From positions 1-38,555 of the forward strand of contig JAGPIY010000002.1 of the NCBI GenBank assembly GCA_018054715.1: a stretch of DNA of 38,555 nt, written 5' to 3'. Below, piece by piece: positions 4,986 to 36,269 of this stretch (its first letter is position 1; each line of letters opens with the position of its first letter). The position numbers and the translations under genes were made by a program. Under the pieces are notes generated by a model. The model did no database searches. It was not told the DNA's origin and saw nothing but the letters and a program-made list of their open reading frames with translations. This DNA comes from Bacteroidaceae bacterium. Its GTDB lineage: Bacteria > Bacteroidota > Bacteroidia > Bacteroidales > Bacteroidaceae.

Positions 4986-5936
4986 ATGATCGATCAAACC
5001 CACAAATACGCCTTGCACTTCGCTCCACTACAAGGCCATACCGAAGCCGGTTATCGAAACGCCCACTCCAAAGTTTTTGGCGGCATTGATGCCTACTATA
5101 CTCCTTTTGTTCGTTTGGAGCAAGGGGGCATGCGCAATAAAGATCTTCGAGATTTAGTTGCAACGCGTAATAACGTACCACGACTTATTCCACAACTTAT
5201 TGCCAACAAGGCAGAAGATGCCGAAATTGTATTGAAACGTTTCATTGAAGAAGGATATACCGAAGTCGACTTTAATATGGGATGCCCTTTCCCTCTACTT
5301 ACAAGACGAGGCAAAGGAGCCGGGATATTAACTTCTCCACAACAGGTAGACGAAGTACTCAAGTTAACCAACGCCTACCCAACGATAAATTTTTCGGTTA
5401 AGATGCGTCTCGGTTTAGAGGATCCGGAAGAATGCCTTCGTTTGCTTCCTATTCTCGCTGAAGCACAGCTCCAACACATCACGCTTCATGCACGAACAGG
5501 AAAACAACAATACAAAGGGATATGCAACTTGGAAGCCTTCGAAGCCTTTTATAAGGAATGCCCACATCCTTTACTATACAATGGCGACATCCAAACAGCA
5601 GAAGAAGTAGAACGCTTATACACTCGTTTTCCTCGCTTAGCAGGAGTTATGCTAGGCCGTGGATTGTTGGCAAACCCTGCTCTAGCAATGGAAATTCAAA
5701 CACAGAAAACACTCTCGAAAGAAGAGTTGTACTCCAAGGTTTTCACCTTACATCAAAATGTTTGGATCGAGAATGAAAAATTAATCGAAGGAGGTGAAGC
5801 TCAATTATTGGGAAAGATGAAAACCTTCTGGGAATATCTTTTACCCGATGCAGAGAAGAAACTACGAAAGAAAATTCTGAAGAGTAATCGTACCAGCGAT
5901 TATCTGCTCGCAGTAAAACAACTACTTCTTATTTAA
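4986..5936 (+). CDS. tRNA-dihydrouridine synthase family protein
   Basis: FMN-dependent enzyme that reduces uridines in the tRNA D-loop to dihydrouridine using NADPH. 316 residues, usual Dus length. Visible: an N-terminal TIM-barrel strand with the FMN motif (FAPLQGHTEAGYR), the family motif EVDFNMGCPFPLLTRRGKGAG with the conserved Cys of GCP, SVKMRLG, the LHARTGKQQYKG loop, YNGDIQT and VMLGRGLLANPAL for the phosphate-binding end. The C-terminal helical domain is present. Which uridine it modifies cannot be told from sequence alone. The start ATG follows the DUF3943 stop by 18 nt. Confidence 0.93.
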   Translation: MIDQTHKYALHFAPLQGHTEAGYRNAHSKVFGGIDAYYTPFVRLEQGGMRNKDLRDLVATRNNVPRLIPQLIANKAEDAEIVLKRFIEEGYTEVDFNMGCPFPLLTRRGKGAGILTSPQQVDEVLKLTNAYPTINFSVKMRLGLEDPEECLRLLPILAEAQLQHITLHARTGKQQYKGICNLEAFEAFYKECPHPLLYNGDIQTAEEVERLYTRFPRLAGVMLGRGLLANPALAMEIQTQKTLSKEELYSKVFTLHQNVWIENEKLIEGGEAQLLGKMKTFWEYLLPDAEKKLRKKILKSNRTSDYLLAVKQLLLI

Positions 5937-5938
5937 AC

Positions 5939-5980
5939 TAGACAGATTATTAAATTAGACAGATTATTAAATTAGGCAGA
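5939..5980. repeat. 17-bp tandem repeat, two and a half copies
   Basis: TAGACAGATTATTAAAT occurs at 5939-5955 and 5956-5972, with a decayed partial third copy (TAGGCAGA) to 5980. It fills the gap between the convergent dus and pfkA ends. No convincing terminator hairpin is visible here. Confidence 0.85.
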
Positions 5981-21448: not shown

Positions 21449-23272
21449 CTACTTTCTGGGCAACATCTTTTTTATTTTTGCCCCAAATTTTTTAAGGCCC
21501 GACACTAACCCTTTTTTCTCATCTGCTTGTGAACTAGCAACAGGCACTGGCGTGCGAGCTTCTATTTTCGACAGTTGCTGGTCAGAGCGAGTTCTTCGAG
21601 TTCGTTCGTCTCCATTACGAGGTTTCCGATACTCACGATGCGATTCATCGCCTTCTTTGCGAGGTTCTCTCGACTCTCCTCGAGGAGCACGGGGCTCTCT
21701 TCTTTCACGAGGCTGTCTATCTTCACGAGGCTGTCTGTCCTCACGAAAAGGCTTGTTTTCACGGGGGGCACGTTCCTGCTTTTCCTCGGAACGATTTTCA
21801 GTTCCCATCTGGGGTGATCGGTTAGGATCACGACGGTCTCGTGAATTGCGACGGCTATTATTAGAAGAACGACGATTTGCATTAGAACCCGGCTCTCCTT
21901 CTTTACGAGGCTGCTGTCTTTCTGCAGAAGCAGGCTGATCTGCACTCATCGTTACCTCGGTTGATGATTCCGTTACCTCGGATTCAGGAGCAGGTCTATT
22001 CTTACGGCGATCGTTGTTACGACCTTCTCCCTGACCTTTTCTACGATTTTCAGAAGAAGGACGCTCACGACCATCTGAAGGACGTCCTTCACGACGTCCA
22101 CGAGTCTCACCACGCGAATTTGGACTATAAGCAGGAGCCTCACCTAATTCACTAGGTATTGGTATTTTATAAATATCCTTTTCAAGAAATTTCTCTATTT
22201 GACGCCATTTGCCTTGTTCTTTCTCACAAACAAAAGTAATTGCAACACCATCACGATCCGCACGAGCTGTACGACCAATACGGTGCACATAATCCTCGCT
22301 ATCATGAGGCACATCATAATTGATTACCAGACTAATATCGTCAATATCAATGCCTCGGCTTACAATATCCGTAGCGACCAAAATCTGGACACGTCCGTTT
22401 TTAAATTCGTGCATCACCTCATCCCGCTGCGATTGATCAAGATCAGAATGCATCTCACCCACACTTAAATTCATACGGAGTAGCGACTTCGTAACTTCCT
22501 TCACTTTCAATTTCGAGGAAGAAAATATAATGACACGTTCCGGAGGCTGCTCTTTAAATAGTTGGCTAATGATGCCTAATTTCTGCTTTTCATAACAGAT
22601 ATAGCAACTCTGCATGATCTTCTCTGCCGGCTTTGATACAGCAAGTTTCACCTCTACAGGATTATGCAAGATATTCTTAGAAAGCTTCTGAATATTATCA
22701 GGCATTGTAGCTGAGAAAAGTATTGTTTGACGAGTATCAGGCATTAATTTCACAACTTGCATAATATCATCATAAAAGCCCATATCAAGCATTCTGTCAG
22801 CCTCATCCAAAATAAAATAAGAAATCTTAGATAAGTCTACATATCCTAAAGCAATATGAGCCAATAAACGTCCGGGGGTAGCAATCACGACATCCGCTCC
22901 AAGAGTCAATCCCTTCCGCTCTTGCGCAAAACGAACTCCGTCATTTCCTCCATATACAGGCACGCTGCTAAAAGGTACATAATAAGAGAAACCTTCCATT
23001 TGTTGGTCGATCTGCTGCGCCAATTCACGCGTAGGAGCCATAATAATGCAATTAATTGCATCATCAGGGTGCCCATCGTTAAGTAAGTTGTTTAATAGAG
23101 GAAGGATATATGCAGCAGTTTTTCCGGTACCGGTCTGCGCTACGCCAATTAAGTCTTTTCCTTCTAAAAGAGGCGGTATGGTATGTTCTTGCACCGGAGT
23201 GCACTCGTCAAATCGCATGATTTCAAGTGCATCAAGCACTGCGTCATCAAGTTTGAGTTCTGTAAATTTCAT
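21449..23272 (-). CDS. DEAD-box RNA helicase with long Arg/Glu-rich tail
   Basis: ATP-dependent RNA helicase, 607 residues. The start is ATG 23272 (MKFTELKLDDAVLDAL); the longer frame to 23383 runs through a -7 element and the PL11 terminator. Motifs: Q-motif FDECTPVQ, motif I AQTGTGKT (45-52), Ia PTRELAQQ, TPGRLL, II DEAD, III SAT, ARGIDID-like VSRGIDIDD, and VI HRIGRTARADR. After about residue 385 comes a 220-residue low-complexity tail rich in Arg, Glu, Pro and Asn, with near-exact REDRQP repeats, expected to be disordered and RNA-binding. RhlE-like by organisation. Cold-adaptation or RNA-turnover roles are typical of such paralogues. Confidence 0.94.
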   Translation of the reverse strand: MKFTELKLDDAVLDALEIMRFDECTPVQEHTIPPLLEGKDLIGVAQTGTGKTAAYILPLLNNLLNDGHPDDAINCIIMAPTRELAQQIDQQMEGFSYYVPFSSVPVYGGNDGVRFAQERKGLTLGADVVIATPGRLLAHIALGYVDLSKISYFILDEADRMLDMGFYDDIMQVVKLMPDTRQTILFSATMPDNIQKLSKNILHNPVEVKLAVSKPAEKIMQSCYICYEKQKLGIISQLFKEQPPERVIIFSSSKLKVKEVTKSLLRMNLSVGEMHSDLDQSQRDEVMHEFKNGRVQILVATDIVSRGIDIDDISLVINYDVPHDSEDYVHRIGRTARADRDGVAITFVCEKEQGKWRQIEKFLEKDIYKIPIPSELGEAPAYSPNSRGETRGRREGRPSDGRERPSSENRRKGQGEGRNNDRRKNRPAPESEVTESSTEVTMSADQPASAERQQPRKEGEPGSNANRRSSNNSRRNSRDRRDPNRSPQMGTENRSEEKQERAPRENKPFREDRQPREDRQPRERREPRAPRGESREPRKEGDESHREYRKPRNGDERTRRTRSDQQLSKIEARTPVPVASSQADEKKGLVSGLKKFGAKIKKMLPRK

Positions 23273-30272: not shown

Positions 30273-33200
30273 TTACAGAGCCATCTTGTACATGTCCTTC
30301 TTTTTATTTTCGGTATGTTTTACCTCTACTATAAAAACTTTATTAGCCGTAGCAGGAAGTACAAAGGAGTAGCTTTTAGTATTTAATATCTCACTACCTT
30401 CAACATTATAAACAGCAATACGGTCAATGTCATTGCATCCTGTAACGGTGACCACACGCCCCTCTACTGCTATTTTCGTATTGGTTTCAGCCACCACCGC
30501 AGTAATACCCGTACCACCTCCGGGATTCATTATGATGGTATAGATTCCACCTTCTTTAGTCTGGAACTTAATATGGTTACTATTCAGAATTTCCGATTTT
30601 ATCGTATCACCCTTGGCATCAACAACCACAGCCTTATTAATATTAGCATAAGCCACCGAACAATCTTTTCCGCTAAAGGATTTGATAATTACCTTGGTCG
30701 GCTTCCCCTCCTCCCAGTATTCGTCCACTTCAAAGTTATTTATAGCACGTAACCCCGTAACCGAACCTTTTTTCCAAATAGAAGGTAGTGCCGGAAGAAT
30801 CTGTATCGTATCGTTTTGACTTTGCAACAGCATTTCCGCAATGCCGGAACAAGCACCGAAGTTTCCATCAATCTGGAAAGGAGAATGCGAGTCGAACAAA
30901 TTGTAATAAACACCTCCCGCACTCATATTTACAGTATAGGCTGTAGAATGTTTCAAAGCAGCCTTCAAAAGGGCACGAGCATGATCTCCATTAAGAGCTC
31001 TTGCCCAAAGATTTATTTTCCAGCCCATCGACCAGCCCGTAGATTCGTCACCACGGAGATTCATCGCATTTACCGCTGGAGTAAAATAAGAACTTGATGG
31101 GGAAATTTGGTTGAAAGGGAAAAGACACATCAAATGAGACAAATGCCGATGTGCACTTTCACTTCCGTTGCCTGTGGCATAATCGGTATATTTCCATTCT
31201 CGGAGAATTTGATTTCCAGTGCTAACCCCATTACGTGTAGCTCCAAAAGTACCCTTATAGGTTTCCAGGCCAAGGCCAGTATCCAGATTATTAAATTTGT
31301 TTGTGAGTTCCACCATAAAGTCGTTGTCCACTCCTGCCTCTTGAATGCCTAATACATTGATAGCTTCCAACGTATTACGAAACAAATCCCATGTTAACTG
31401 TTGCGCATGTGCCGTCGCGTTTTCCGAATCAGGACCATGCTCAGGTGACCATTCTTTCGGACATTCGTACGTACCGTCAGAAGCTTTTACCAGGCGTTCC
31501 ATCCAAAACTTCGTACAGCTCAGCATCACAGGCATTGCCTTTGCTCTGAGGAATTCCTTATCAAGCGTATAGCGGTAATGTTGCCACATATGCGAAGCAT
31601 ACCATGCATTAGCTATCACATAATTATTCTTGAAAGAAGTACAATGCCCAAAAATATTGTTTTCTGTGAAGCAAGTCCACCCCGTAGTCTGCCCCGAATT
31701 CCGTGCATACTGTTTCCATTGCGGTTGCACAATGGCCATATCGTACACATAATTAAGAAATTTCTCATGCATTTCGGGAAGATTTGTAACCTCCGCCGGC
31801 CAATAATTCATCTGCACATTGATATTGCTGTGAATGTCTGATTGCCAAGCTGGCGATGCAGAGTTATTCCAGATGCCCTGCAGGTTGGCAGGTGAGTCTA
31901 CACCTCGTGACGAACTAATCAACAAGTAACGACCATAATGGAAATACAATTGTTCTAACATGAACATTGTCGATTTATTAGTGGTTGTACTGTAAGTATC
32001 GATAAGTTTATTAGTGGGTAAAGAGTTAACCGCCTCATCCAAAGTAAGCCGTACCCTTGCAAAAAGAGGCTGATAATCAGAAATATGTCGATTATAAAGC
32101 TCCGTCCATCCTTTTTCTCCAGCTTCCGTGGCACGAGCAGAAATCTTCGAAGCCAACTCAGTCGTCCCGCTGATATATCCGGAAGCTACCGGATCGAAAT
32201 CGGTTCCACCAGCTAGAATAACGAGTACCTCATCCGCACCTTTTACAGTAACTCCGGTCGCATTTGTGGTTAGACTGCCACCAACGGGAATTACCTTCAT
32301 GCGCGCATTGTAACTCACAGCAGTTAGTTTTCCTTTAAACACGCCCTCTCCATTAGCATAAGAAGGCCTTTCACCAAGTGCATTATAAAGATAGAAATGG
32401 TTATTGATGCATCCCGGTTTCGAAGCGCTCAAACGGATAGCAATACATTGATCGGAATAACTAGCAATATATTCACGCTTAAAGGTAACTGTACCTGCAG
32501 GATTTGTCCAACTTGCCGAGGCTGTTGCCGTTTCCAAATCCAACTGACGATAGTAATTTTTAACCGCTTTTGCAGCTAGAGTAGTAGAGAACAAAGAATC
32601 ACACGTCTCCTCAATATAGAGTTGCCCGAAGTTTTGATAAGCTCCACGCACCGTAGAGCTCCCCGTCCATAAAGTTTTTTCATTAAACTGAAGTACATCC
32701 TGATGAATACCACCATACACCATACCTCCAAACTGTCCATTGCCGATAGGCAATGCATAATCCATCCACGGATTGGAAACCGTTTCACTCGTAGTGGGTT
32801 TCGTATACCACAGAGTAACTTGATTTGAAGGAGTATAAGAAATAGAAGCCGCATATTTGTATTCTGCCAACGTGGTAGGCAGTTTATCGTTAATAACAAC
32901 ATCAGAAGGCAATACAAATTCCAAAGGATTATTTGGATCGTATGCATCCCAACTACCCAACTCTTTATATGCTCCGGCACCACTCCACTGATTCATTGAA
33001 TATCCCGGCATAGTGCGATTTTGAATTTCCCATGCAGGACTGTACGTAGAATTGGTTGTAGGCACAAGCTTCAAATTCCCAATACGACTTGTAGAAGAAG
33101 CAAAACGGTAACTGCTCCCGCGACTTGCACCGGTATAGTAAATGTGCCGCCCATTTTTACTGACAATTTCACAAGAGTCCTGAGTCCCAAGCACTTTCCA

Positions 33201-33399
33201 AAGTTGACTATCAGAGGTAACCGGTGCTTTTGTCATCACATTTTTGCCGTCACCCATATCCTGTAATACGGCACTACCGTTTTTAAATTGGATATAATAC
33301 CACACTTCATTTCCACCTGCACTAAACGTAGGAAGAGTTTGCGCCGCCAGTCGAAAAGAAAAGATAACGACTCCTAAAAATAAAAAAAAGATTTTTCAT
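30273..33399 (-). CDS. GH95 glycosidase (alpha-L-fucosidase family), signal peptide out of frame
   Basis: Family 95 glycoside hydrolase: exo-alpha-1,2-L-fucosidase or alpha-L-galactosidase activity is typical. The main frame (33305-30273, 1,010 residues) has a ricin-like N-terminal part, then GNGQFGGMVYGGIHQDVLQFNEKTLWTG, NLQGIWNNSASPAWQSDIHSNINVQMNYWPAE (catalytic Asn/Asp region), ECPKEWSPEHGP, and FQIDGNFGACSGIAEMLLQ. A C-terminal beta domain (DRIAVYNVEGSEI, VFIVEV) resembles T9SS-type or adhesin tails. An ATG at 33399 opens a signal-peptide-like reading frame, MKNLFFIF, but a run of eight T (minus strand; 33382-33389) shifts it by one base; with seven T it reads MKNLFLFLGVVIFSFRLAAQ and joins the main frame. 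Coordinates span the reconstructed gene; translation as sequenced would need a frameshift. Confidence 0.85.
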
Positions 33400-33633
33400 A
33401 TAAATAAAGATTGAGAAGTTTTAATTGTTTCTCTTTAATACGAATCAATACTGATCTTTACACAAAGGCTTGTAATTAATTAACGTTGCTACATATAAAA
33501 AGCATCATTGGAAGAAAAGACATCAATTAGTCTACCTTTTTCAGAAAAGGACAATGAGTGCTATTTAAATAATAATGATTCTTTAGGAGATATTTTTTGG
33601 CTAAATAAGAATTTCGGGGAAAAAAGTTTCATC

Positions 33634-33828
33634 TTTCAGGTTTTGAATTTAAACAGCTGTAAAGCAAACAGATAAACCCTGAAAGATTCAAAAAAAGCCT
33701 TCAGGAAACCTTCAGGAGAAAAACAGATAAATTATAGGAACGGGCTGAAGGATTTCTGAAGGGTTGAGAGAAACCCTTCAGGGTGTTTTACACTGTATAT
33801 CAGTAGGTTATATGAAAAGACTGAAGGG
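33634..33828. repeat. Cluster of TTCAGG/CCTGAA repeats
   Basis: At least eight copies in both orientations: TTTCAGG 33634, CCCTGAA 33677, CCTTCAGG 33698 and 33709, CTGAAGG 33745, CTGAAGGG 33756, CCCTTCAGGG 33774, CTGAAGGG 33821. Two form a perfect 10-bp hairpin, CTGAAGGGTT (33756-33765) with AACCCTTCAG (33772-33781), loop GAGAGA. AAACAGATAAA is also duplicated at 33666 and 33721. Confidence 0.85.
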
Positions 33829-33953
33829 TTGAAAGGTTTTTTAGCAAATTGTTTATTATAGATATAAGAGGGGAAATACGGCAAAAAAACAGCTAGCAAA
33901 AAGATAAATCTATAAATTCAAGCCCCAAAAAGGATAGCATCAAGCTACAAAAA

Positions 33954-34082
33954 CATAAGCATCTTTCCAAGCAAACATAAGCATCTCTTGGACAAGACAT
34001 AAGCATCTCTTAAACAAGACATAAGCTGCTTTTTTAAAATCATAAGCAACAAATTTTATTTCATGCCCAACAAATTTAATCC
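33954..34082. repeat. Tandem array of 21-22-bp repeats (CATAAGC array)
   Basis: Six consecutive units start at 33954, 33976, 33998, 34020, 34041 and 34062, at spacings of 22, 22, 22, 21 and 21 bp. Each begins CATAAGC (the last decayed to CATGCCC). The first three share CATAAGCATCT and an A/C/G-rich tail; the later units diverge into T/A-rich tails. The period is not a multiple of three, so it is not a coding repeat, and there are no separated spacers as in CRISPR. Confidence 0.85.
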
Positions 34083-34193: not shown

Positions 34194-34337
34194 TTAGATA
34201 AAATCGGAAGCAAATAAATAAATTACGAATGCTATTGCCGCCAATAAAAGGATGCCTTTTACAAGAATTGTTTTTACAATTTTCCATCCAATAAATACAG
34301 CTAAAATTATTAAAAGTATATAAATATAATGTGTCAT
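34194..34337 (-). CDS. Small hydrophobic membrane protein (47 aa)
   Basis: 47 residues from an ATG at 34337 to TAA at 34194-34196. The sequence has two hydrophobic stretches (YIYILLIILAVFIGW and ILLLAAIAFVIYLFA) separated by KIVKTILVKG, so it is a one- or two-helix membrane protein. A TACTTTTG element sits 15 nt upstream in the right orientation. Codon use and hydrophobic organisation look real but homology is unknown; it could be chance. Divergent from the DUF4251 gene. Confidence 0.5.
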   Translation of the reverse strand: MTHYIYILLIILAVFIGWKIVKTILVKGILLLAAIAFVIYLFASDFI

Positions 34338-34352
34338 GCTTCTTTTTTGCGA

Positions 34353-34360
34353 CAAAAGTA
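34353..34360 (-). promoter_or_regulatory. -7 element for the small membrane ORF (TACTTTTG)
   Basis: Match to TAnnTTTG on the minus strand, 15 nt before the ATG at 34337. No -33 box recognised. Confidence 0.4.
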
Positions 34361-34425: not shown

Positions 34426-34914
34426 ATGAAAAAATGGATATCATACTTGCTCCTAATCGTTTTTACGATGAGTGCTAGTACTTGCATTGCACAAAGCAAA
34501 GCAGAAAAGAGAGAATTAATAAAGGCGCAGATTATGCGTCGAGTTGAAGCACGACGTTTTAAAATTAATATAACAGAGATCAAAGCTTCGCGACAAAATT
34601 CGGGTGCTGTAGATGCCTCGCTTGAGATTATTGACTCGCTGTGTGTTTCCTATCTGCCCTATTTCGGACAGATCCATGGAGCAATTCTCAACTCGAGCGA
34701 ACAAGGTTTGAGTTTTGAAGCCCCTACAGAAGGTTATATATCTTCTATAATCTACGATGGTACGGCGAAGATACTCTTTAACGTAAAGCGCAATCAAGAT
34801 GAATTCGTTTATTATTTAGTTATTTCGCCCAAAGGCAAAGCGGATTTAACAGTATACGAAAAAAGCAACCGGCGCTCACCCGCCTCTTATTCAGGGGAGA
34901 TTGAGTTGCCGTAA
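34426..34914 (+). CDS. DUF4251 domain-containing exported protein
   Basis: 162 residues from ATG 34426, preceded by AGGAGA at a good distance. Signal peptide MKKWISYLLLIVFTMSASTCIAQ. The remainder matches DUF4251: an Arg/Lys-rich helix (KAEKRELIKAQIMRRVEARRFKINI), then DSLCVSYLPYFGQIHG, LSFEAPTEGY and a C-terminal beta segment. Function unknown; common in Bacteroidetes. 32 nt before ffh with no promoter in between, so probably co-transcribed. Confidence 0.85.
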   Translation: MKKWISYLLLIVFTMSASTCIAQSKAEKRELIKAQIMRRVEARRFKINITEIKASRQNSGAVDASLEIIDSLCVSYLPYFGQIHGAILNSSEQGLSFEAPTEGYISSIIYDGTAKILFNVKRNQDEFVYYLVISPKGKADLTVYEKSNRRSPASYSGEIELP

Positions 34915-34946
34915 AAGATAGATAAACTTACAGTAACAATAAAAAT

Positions 34947-36269
34947 ATGTTCGATAATTTAAGCGAAAGACTTGAACGGTCGTTTAAAATCCTAAAAGGT
35001 GAGGGAAAAATCACCGAGATAAATGTAGCAGAAACGCTGAAAGATGTGCGCAAAGCACTCTTGGATGCCGACGTAAACTATAAAGTAGCAAAAAACTTCA
35101 CCACCACCGTGAAGGAAAAAGCGTTAGGTCAAAATGTGCTCACAGCGGTAAAGCCTAGCCAACTGATGGTAAAAATCGTGCACGATGAGTTAGCCCTTTT
35201 GATGGGTGGCGAAACAGCGGAAGTGCACACAAAGGGAAATCCGGCGGTTATTCTAATGGCTGGTTTACAAGGTTCCGGTAAAACGACCTTCTCTGCCAAG
35301 CTTGCTAAAATGCTTAAGGAAAAGAAGAGTCTCAAACCTCTTCTGGTAGCCTGCGACGTATACCGTCCTGCTGCAATTGAGCAGCTCCGCGTTCTAGGTG
35401 AACAAATCGGAGTGCCTGTATTCATGGAACCGGAAAGCAAAGATCCGGTTTCAATTGCCAAACACGCTATCATTGAAGCACGCACCAAAGGTTGCGACTT
35501 AGTGATTGTCGATACAGCCGGCCGTCTGGCAGTAGATGAGCAGATGATGAATGAAATTGCAGCGATTAAAGATGCAATTACTCCACACGAAATTCTGTTT
35601 GTGGTCGATTCTATGACTGGTCAGGATGCTGTCAATACAGCCAAAGAATTTAACGAACGGTTGGATTTTACAGGTGTAGTACTAACGAAGCTCGACGGTG
35701 ACACCCGTGGTGGTGCCGCGTTGTCGATTCGTTCGGTGGTAGAAAAACCTATCAAATTTGTAGGAACGGGCGAAAAGATGGAAGCGATCGACTTCTTCCA
35801 CCCTAGCCGTATGGCAGATCGTATCCTCGGAATGGGCGATATCGTATCGTTAGTAGAAAAAGCACAAGAACAATACGATGAAGCAGAGGCACGACGTCTT
35901 TCAAAGAAGATTGCAAAGAACCAATTCGACTTTAACGACTTCCTCTCACAAATTCAGCAAATCAAGAAGATGGGCAACTTGAAGGATCTTGCCAGCATGA
36001 TTCCCGGCGTAGGAAAGGCTCTGAAAGATGCAGAAATTGATGACAATGCCTTTAAAGGCGTAGAAGCTATCATCTTTTCGATGACCGCTAAGGAACGTAA
36101 GAATCCGGATTTGCTAAACAGTAGCCGTCGCGAACGCATTGCAAAAGGTAGTGGCACTAGTATACAAGAGGTTAACCGCTTCCTCAAGCAGTTTGAGCAA
36201 ACCCGTAAAATGATGAAAATGATGACTGGACCAAAAGCGGCTCAGATGATGGCACAAATGAAACGATAA
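34947..36269 (+). CDS. ffh: Signal recognition particle protein Ffh
   Basis: GTPase binding 4.5S RNA and nascent signal sequences for co-translational membrane targeting. 440 residues: N domain (1-90), G domain with GLQGSGKTT (G1), DTAGR (G3) and [10 protein letters not shown] (G4 region), and an M domain rich in Met, ending [20 protein letters not shown]. Full length and intact. folD follows after 17 nt. Confidence 0.97.

What the first reader, a model, noticed from the sequence alone, without database searches (positions are those of the whole stretch)
33954..34082. Six-unit tandem array of 21-22-bp repeats beginning CATAAGC
The spacing is 22, 22, 22, 21, 21 bp, close to two helical turns, so each CATAAGC would face the same side of the DNA. 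Iteron-like or regulator-binding arrays look like this. It is not coding and not CRISPR, and the units decay toward the small membrane ORF. No known element of this description comes to mind.
Basis: seen in the sequence. Interest (0 to 1): 0.62.

Follow-up and report, generated by a model that had tools for sequence, protein, structure and literature searches.

The report
Dispersed two-turn-phased intergenic repeat arrays
The six-unit 22-bp array is one copy of a repeat array scattered through the gaps between genes in this Bacteroidaceae bacterium and, with other letters but the same spacing of two DNA turns, in many of its relatives; this points to a widespread, apparently undescribed class of phased DNA arrays rather than a switch for one gene.

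Summary
The array is real: exact CATAAGC at 33954, 33976, 33998, 34020 and 34041, a decayed sixth unit at 34062 (22,22,22,21,21) and a decayed unit at 33931. It is not local. The same 22-bp unit recurs at about ten or more other intergenic places in the 1.94-Mb genome. The window copy sits in a ~490-bp composite repeat (~33590-34079) with an inverted CTGAAAGAT module. The only other species held from the genus carries its own version (AGYGCTGCATCTTTTYC..AAA, ~58 arrays/Mb), free-standing and in either orientation. Spacing is constrained: 42/42 and 102/104 neighbouring units lie exactly 22 bp apart although spacers are only 46-59% identical; between copies the flanks carry indels, the array only whole-unit gains. 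Unexpectedly, a letter-blind scan finds 22-bp arrays of unrelated sequence across Bacteroidaceae genera (lag 22 in 55 of 424 gaps; lags other than 21, 22, 44 at most 8) but in 1 of 178 control gaps and 2 of 700 coding pieces. Best reading: two-turn-phased intergenic arrays, probably multi-site protein docking or chromosome-architecture elements; main rival: selfish BrickBuilt-like minisatellites. Not an iteron origin, CRISPR or single-gene operator. Any binding protein is unknown.

The parts
33931..33952 (+). decayed first unit (AGGATAGCATCAAGCTACAAAA), 'leader' of the array
   Evidence: 22-bp unit profile score 4.3 in phase with the array; AAAAAGGATAGCATCAA..TACAAAA is conserved in close copies
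33953..34018 (+). three full 22-bp units ACATAAGCATCTYTTNNNNNAA
   Evidence: profile scores 25.3, 27.0, 27.3; TRF score 83
34019..34040 (+). terminal unit whose spacer is a T-run; a T-run at this place occurs in all ten copies first compared
   Evidence: profile score 13.1
34041..34078 (+). tail CATAAGCAACAAATTTTATTTCATGCCCAACAAATTT: two decayed 21-bp units, sharp right edge of the repeat
   Evidence: similarity to close copies stops at 34077-34079; tail conserved over 17 arrays
33743..33850 (+). upstream module R2: CTGAAGGATT..CTGAAGGGTT hairpin, CTGTATATCAG, CTGAAGGGTTGAAAG
   Evidence: 52 hits at E<=1 in own genome, none in the sister species; DNA fold z = -3.4
33590..33715 (-). second R2 copy in inverted orientation (left arm of the composite repeat)
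   Evidence: R2 model hit 33620-33715 minus, E=5e-11; blastn similarity to another copy from 33590
33851..33930 (+). variable linker between R2 and the array
   Evidence: length and sequence vary, with indels, between copies
34194..34355 (-). small membrane ORF (53 aa) next to the array
   Evidence: ORF list; no Pfam match
30273..33305 (-). GH95 glycoside hydrolase gene; listed start about 650 bp from the array
   Evidence: Pfam PF22124, E=2.3e-122
34429..36269 (+). DUF4251 gene followed by ffh (SRP54); the sister species has the same pair with array units nearby
   Evidence: Pfam; units at G001:C20:35373 and 35417

Best explanation
The array is one copy of a dispersed, non-coding, intergenic repeat made of tandem 22-bp units. 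Its conserved part (A[CG]NNNNGCATCT) recurs every two helical turns, so that several identical contacts line up on one side of the DNA. I infer that it works as a multi-site docking array for a DNA-binding protein with a general, probably architectural role (nucleoid organisation or insulation of gene junctions, BIME-like) and not as the operator of one gene. Shown: dispersal, intergenic location, conserved spacing under divergence, species-specific consensus, no preference for a gene arrangement, and recurrence of the same period with other sequences across Bacteroidaceae. Inferred: that a protein binds it, and the architectural role.
For: Dispersal: 16 exact double units at 10 contigs and 62 model hits at E<=1 in the genome; none of 19 profile-defined arrays lies inside a predicted gene. 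Spacing: neighbouring units exactly 22 bp apart in 42 of 42 cases (own genome) and 102 of 104 (sister) with spacer identity 0.46 and 0.59; between copies the R2+linker part has 38 indels per 188 mismatches, the array none per 77 except clean 22-bp unit gains (pairwise counts are not independent). Free-standing in the sister: no conserved flank beyond about one decayed unit over 95 arrays, which speaks for site-wise selection rather than one transposon. No arrangement preference: tandem/divergent/convergent 39/17/11 against background 71/35/27, orientation 24 against 15 in tandem gaps. Letter-blind scan: lag 22 in 55, lag 44 in 35, lag 21 in 18 of 424 Bacteroidaceae gaps, every other lag at most 8; 1 of 104 gaps in other Bacteroidales families, 0 of 74 in E. 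coli, 2 of 700 coding pieces.
Against: No binding protein has been identified. In several genomes more than one unrelated 22-bp family occurs, which does not fit a single sequence-specific protein and would need several proteins or one that reads structure. In the window's genome most strong arrays travel with a companion module (R2), which looks like a mobile or copied element. Species-specific sequences could also arise by copying alone. In tandem gaps of the sister the array tends to lie nearer the upstream stop (29 of 42), which also suits an RNA 3'-end role or simple avoidance of promoters.
Confidence: 0.42

Rival explanations
1. Selfish or neutral intergenic minisatellite of the BrickBuilt kind: a MITE-like element (R2 inverted module + linker + array) spread by a transposase in trans; the 22-bp period reflects how units are duplicated, not a function.
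For: Composite of constant order at most strong loci; whole-unit gain in the window copy; P. gingivalis BrickBuilt is an intergenic 23-nt minisatellite with leader and tail (PMC4596501); a Tannerellaceae MAG carries a similar unit inside a longer conserved repeat.
Against: No terminal inverted repeats were seen in the window element; sister arrays have no conserved flanks and no R2; no IS200/REP-type Y1 transposase in either genome (other transposases not searched); absence of non-unit indels in the array against many in the linker; the same period with unrelated letters across genera.
Confidence: 0.33
2. The arrays act as RNA: tandem small hairpins in 3' or intercistronic mRNA that stabilise transcripts or set their ends (REP/BIME-like).
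For: 21/22-bp arrays carry inverted repeats more often than tandem-preserving shuffles (arm of 5 or more: 58% against 18%); in tandem gaps of the sister arrays lie nearer the upstream stop; T-run at the end of the array.
Against: The window array itself folds little better than shuffles (DNA z = -1.0 and -1.8; whole element as RNA z = -1.3); the dyad centre shifts from unit to unit (read from the unit list); arrays occur in divergent gaps and in both orientations; RNA hairpins do not demand a fixed 22-bp spacing.
Confidence: 0.12
3. Operator array of a local regulator (of GH95, the small ORF or DUF4251-ffh).
For: Intergenic; a multi-unit phased array looks like an operator; array units also lie beside DUF4251-ffh in the sister species.
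Against: About 650 bp from the listed GH95 start and over 300 bp from the DUF4251 start; the same unit occurs beside unrelated genes at many loci, including convergent gaps; about one gap in eight of the sister genome has an array anyway.
Confidence: 0.07
4. Iterons of a replication origin.
For: Tandem 22-bp direct repeats next to AT-rich DNA resemble plasmid iterons.
Against: No replication gene among the neighbours; many dispersed copies; no match among 72,556 plasmids.
Confidence: 0.02

Closest known systems
BrickBuilt minisatellite/MITE of Porphyromonas gingivalis (Klein et al. 2015, PMC4596501)
   Same: Bacteroidales; intergenic; tandem units of about two helical turns (23 nt); 19 dispersed copies; variable unit number; leader and tail around the array
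   Different: BrickBuilt has 12-bp IS5-like terminal inverted repeats, arrays of up to 22.8 units, and is reported only from P. gingivalis and P. gulae; here arrays are 2-6 units, no terminal inverted repeats were seen, and arrays are free-standing in the sister species
REP/BIME elements
   Same: Short repeats dispersed in intergenic gaps, species-specific sequence, dyads enriched
   Different: REPs are 20-40-bp palindromes; here units are direct repeats with a strict 22-bp period, and no IS200-type Y1 transposase is found
TAACTGA direct-repeat sets of Beggiatoaceae, Cyanobacteria and some Bacteroidetes (PMC4679880)
   Same: Intergenic direct-repeat sets of 2-6 copies at many loci, function unknown
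   Different: A heptamer unit, in the best-studied genome mostly just upstream of start codons; here 22-bp units with diverged spacers and no link to starts
Plasmid iterons
   Same: Tandem direct repeats of about 22 bp, one unit per two turns (own knowledge)
   Different: Dispersed chromosomal copies without a Rep gene

Membership tests
BrickBuilt-type minisatellite MITE | tandem ~23-nt units, dispersed, intergenic | tested here: met
   22-nt units, dispersed, none of 19 profile-defined arrays in genes
BrickBuilt-type minisatellite MITE | leader and tail segments flanking the array | tested here: inconclusive
   leader/tail-like conservation in own genome, none in the sister
BrickBuilt-type minisatellite MITE | terminal inverted repeats matching a resident IS | tested here: not met
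   by eye, the right end (..CAACAAATTT) has no inverted match at the left end in the aligned copies; resident IS ends were not examined
REP/BIME | 20-40-bp palindrome as the unit | tested here: not met
   AT-rich direct repeats; array folds little better than shuffles
REP/BIME | RAYT (Y1 transposase) in genome | tested here: not met
   PF01797: 0 matches in both genomes, found in 5 of 14 control genomes
Iteron origin | adjacent replication initiator gene | tested here: not met
   neighbours are GH95, DUF4251, Ffh, FolD
CRISPR | repeats of constant sequence separated by unique spacers, with cas genes | tested here: not met
   contiguous 22-bp units with a conserved half and a diverged half; no cas-like neighbours among the six genes tested
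Phased protein-docking array | spacing conserved at whole helical turns under divergence | tested here: met
   42/42 and 102/104 at 22 bp
Phased protein-docking array | a bound protein | not testable with these tools
   needs affinity pull-down or ChIP

The most novel reading that the evidence does not exclude
Bacteroidaceae genomes share an undescribed, sequence-independent class of intergenic arrays whose only constant is the ~22-bp, two-turn period: each species, and each family of arrays within a species, has its own unit. This would imply a conserved reader or builder of two-turn-phased DNA (a nucleoid protein or a dedicated copying machine) that shapes gene junctions across the family.
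Probability: 0.35. Interest if true: 0.82.

Novelty: new variant of a known kind. Interest (0 to 1): 0.6.

Why it matters
Bacteroidaceae dominate many gut communities, yet their intergenic DNA is poorly understood. A two-turn-phased array class that occupies a sizeable share of intergenic gaps in several genera, with different letters but the same period, would be a shared structural feature of their chromosomes and gives direct tests: which protein sits there, and whether half-turn insertions abolish it.

Tried and rejected
Iteron origin (no rep gene, dispersed). CRISPR (no cas-like neighbours, contiguous units). Rfam family (only two tRNAs in the window). REP/RAYT (no Y1 transposase). Canonical MITE for the array itself (no TIR seen; sister arrays lack flanks). 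Local operator (position statistics). RNA structure of the array (z near -1 to -2). A shared R2 module in Prevotella-type loci looked plausible by eye (ATCAGTTAGTTATA) but the R2 model found nothing there, so I dropped it. A shared GCATCTTT core across genera was set aside as partly a selection effect of my own pattern search: the reversed control pattern also found a few dispersed families; I therefore used a letter-blind lag scan. A first context table with crude ORFs was replaced by a codon-scored gene caller, which is itself home-made. GTDB-wide exact pattern: one real relative, a Tannerellaceae MAG, and four isolated hits that look like chance or coding matches. The plasmid search found nothing.

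Full report
Observation. The window shows exact CATAAGC at 33954, 33976, 33998, 34020 and 34041 and a decayed unit at 34062, spacings 22,22,22,21,21; TRF gives it the highest score in the window. A decayed unit precedes it at 33931. No simulated window had even two units 21 or 22 bp apart (0 of 300).

Not local. The same double unit occurs on ten contigs of the own genome, on both strands; a sequence-only model of units plus tail (R1) gives 62 hits at E<=1, the weaker of which may be chance. A 22-bp profile finds 19 arrays in the fetched contigs, none inside a predicted gene and none in shuffled sequence. The neighbours are unrelated genes; in the window they are a GH95 enzyme, a small membrane ORF, DUF4251 and Ffh.

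Composite repeat in this species. Most strong arrays are preceded, some 60-250 bp away, by a second module (R2), a pair of inverted CTGAAAGAT/CTGAAGGGTT hairpin blocks; R2 has 52 hits in the genome and none in the sister species. Comparing close copies puts the window element at about 33590-34079, with a sharp right edge at 34077-34079. The window copy has exactly one more 22-bp unit than the other three aligned copies.

Sister species. The only other genome held from the genus (G001, about 60% G+C against 41% for the window; Ffh 84% identical) has its own 22-bp unit, AGYGCTGCATCTTTTYC..AAA. In 393 kb taken without regard to hits there are 23 arrays (58/Mb), and 16 of 135 gaps over 80 bp hold one. 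In stretches around model hits they lie in tandem, divergent and convergent gaps in background proportions and in both orientations, and over 95 arrays there is no conserved flank beyond about one decayed unit. Array units also lie beside DUF4251-ffh there, but with about one gap in eight occupied this is weak evidence for conservation of the site.

Phasing is constrained. With unit cores detected independently of spacing, neighbours are exactly 22 bp apart in 42 of 42 cases (own genome) and 102 of 104 (sister), although the 9-bp spacers are only 46% and 59% identical. Between four copies of the composite the R2+linker part shows 38 indels per 188 mismatches; the array shows none per 77 mismatches apart from whole 22-bp units. 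Pairwise comparisons are not independent, so this is a strong indication, not a formal test.

Wider distribution. The exact CATAAGC pattern is confined to the own genome among 399 family members. In GTDB it hits one further real repeat, in a Tannerellaceae MAG, where units lie inside a longer conserved repeat. A GCATSTTT pattern search met dispersed 21-23-bp arrays in other genera, among them a two-replicon genome whose sizes match, from memory, Prevotella melaninogenica ATCC 25845. Because that search fixed the letters, I scanned intergenic gaps for any self-similarity at fixed lag. In 424 Bacteroidaceae gaps lag 22 occurs in 55, lag 44 in 35 and lag 21 in 18, every other lag in at most 8; other Bacteroidales families have 1 of 104 and E. 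coli 0 of 74 at lag 22. Coding pieces of the same Bacteroidaceae genomes give 2 of 700. Restricted to 15 genomes of other genera not chosen for earlier hits: lag 22 in 9 of 99 gaps, in 7 genomes; Fisher p = 5e-4 against the controls. The units are unrelated in sequence, several families can occur in one genome, and they carry inverted repeats more often than tandem-preserving shuffles (58% against 18%). Lag 21 may include coding heptads; lag 22 cannot. Limits: the control sets are small, other families were sampled with one stretch each, and genes were called with a home-made codon score.

Mechanism. Constraint on spacing without constraint on spacer letters is what a row of protein contacts on one face of the helix predicts; many loci, all gap types and both orientations argue for a general rather than gene-specific role. 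I therefore favour multi-site docking with an architectural role (0.42). The main rival is a BrickBuilt-like selfish minisatellite (0.33), supported by the composite form in this species and by the known P. gingivalis case (PMC4596501). RNA hairpins (0.12), local operator (0.07) and iterons (0.02) fit less well. The binding protein, if any, is unknown; how short flankless arrays with a species-specific consensus come to be dispersed remains unexplained.

Known kinds. BrickBuilt shares location, period class and leader/tail design, but its defining terminal inverted repeats were not seen here; REP/BIME shares dispersal, but the palindromic unit and the RAYT transposase are missing. I found no paper describing a family-wide 22-bp intergenic period in Bacteroidaceae in the open-access library searched, which does not cover most subscription journals.

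Noticed in passing
L167-L206 (Bacteroidaceae stretches of 20 kb, several genera): Intergenic 21/22-bp arrays of unrelated sequence in many genera, e.g. AAACTAACGTTAGTT units (L188), GCACCATTGGTGC units (L172, L206), TTTTCATGAAAATAAATA units (L168), GACTGTACAGTC units (L184).
   Followed up: partly
L093-L101 (Tannerellaceae MAG JAISRY01): A dispersed repeat with conserved flanks (..AGTGAACGAATGTAAATCGACC..) whose centre holds CATAAGCATC units at 22-bp steps in mixed orientation, able to form long hairpins.
   Followed up: partly
window 33590-33850; R2 hits on many contigs of the own genome: Inverted CTGAAAGAT/CTGAAGGGTT hairpin module with a CTGTATATCAG centre, also present without a strong array nearby (e.g. 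C82, C242, C185, C33); MITE-like, mover unknown.
   Followed up: partly
L216 (other Bacteroidales family), 8231 and 9647: 23-bp intergenic arrays ACCTCACAAGTTTGTCAGTTTTT at two nearby gaps: the period can be 23 outside Bacteroidaceae.
   Followed up: no
L139-L141 (G127): Dispersed 23-bp arrays ACCGCCCGAGGGACGGCATGTTT with a GC-rich dyad, flanked by GTCACTT..CGCGCCG repeats of another kind.
   Followed up: no
window 21688-21746 and 5933-5980: Other short tandem repeats (18-bp CACGAGGCTGTCTATCTT; 17-bp TTAAATTAGACAGATTA) in the window.
   Followed up: no
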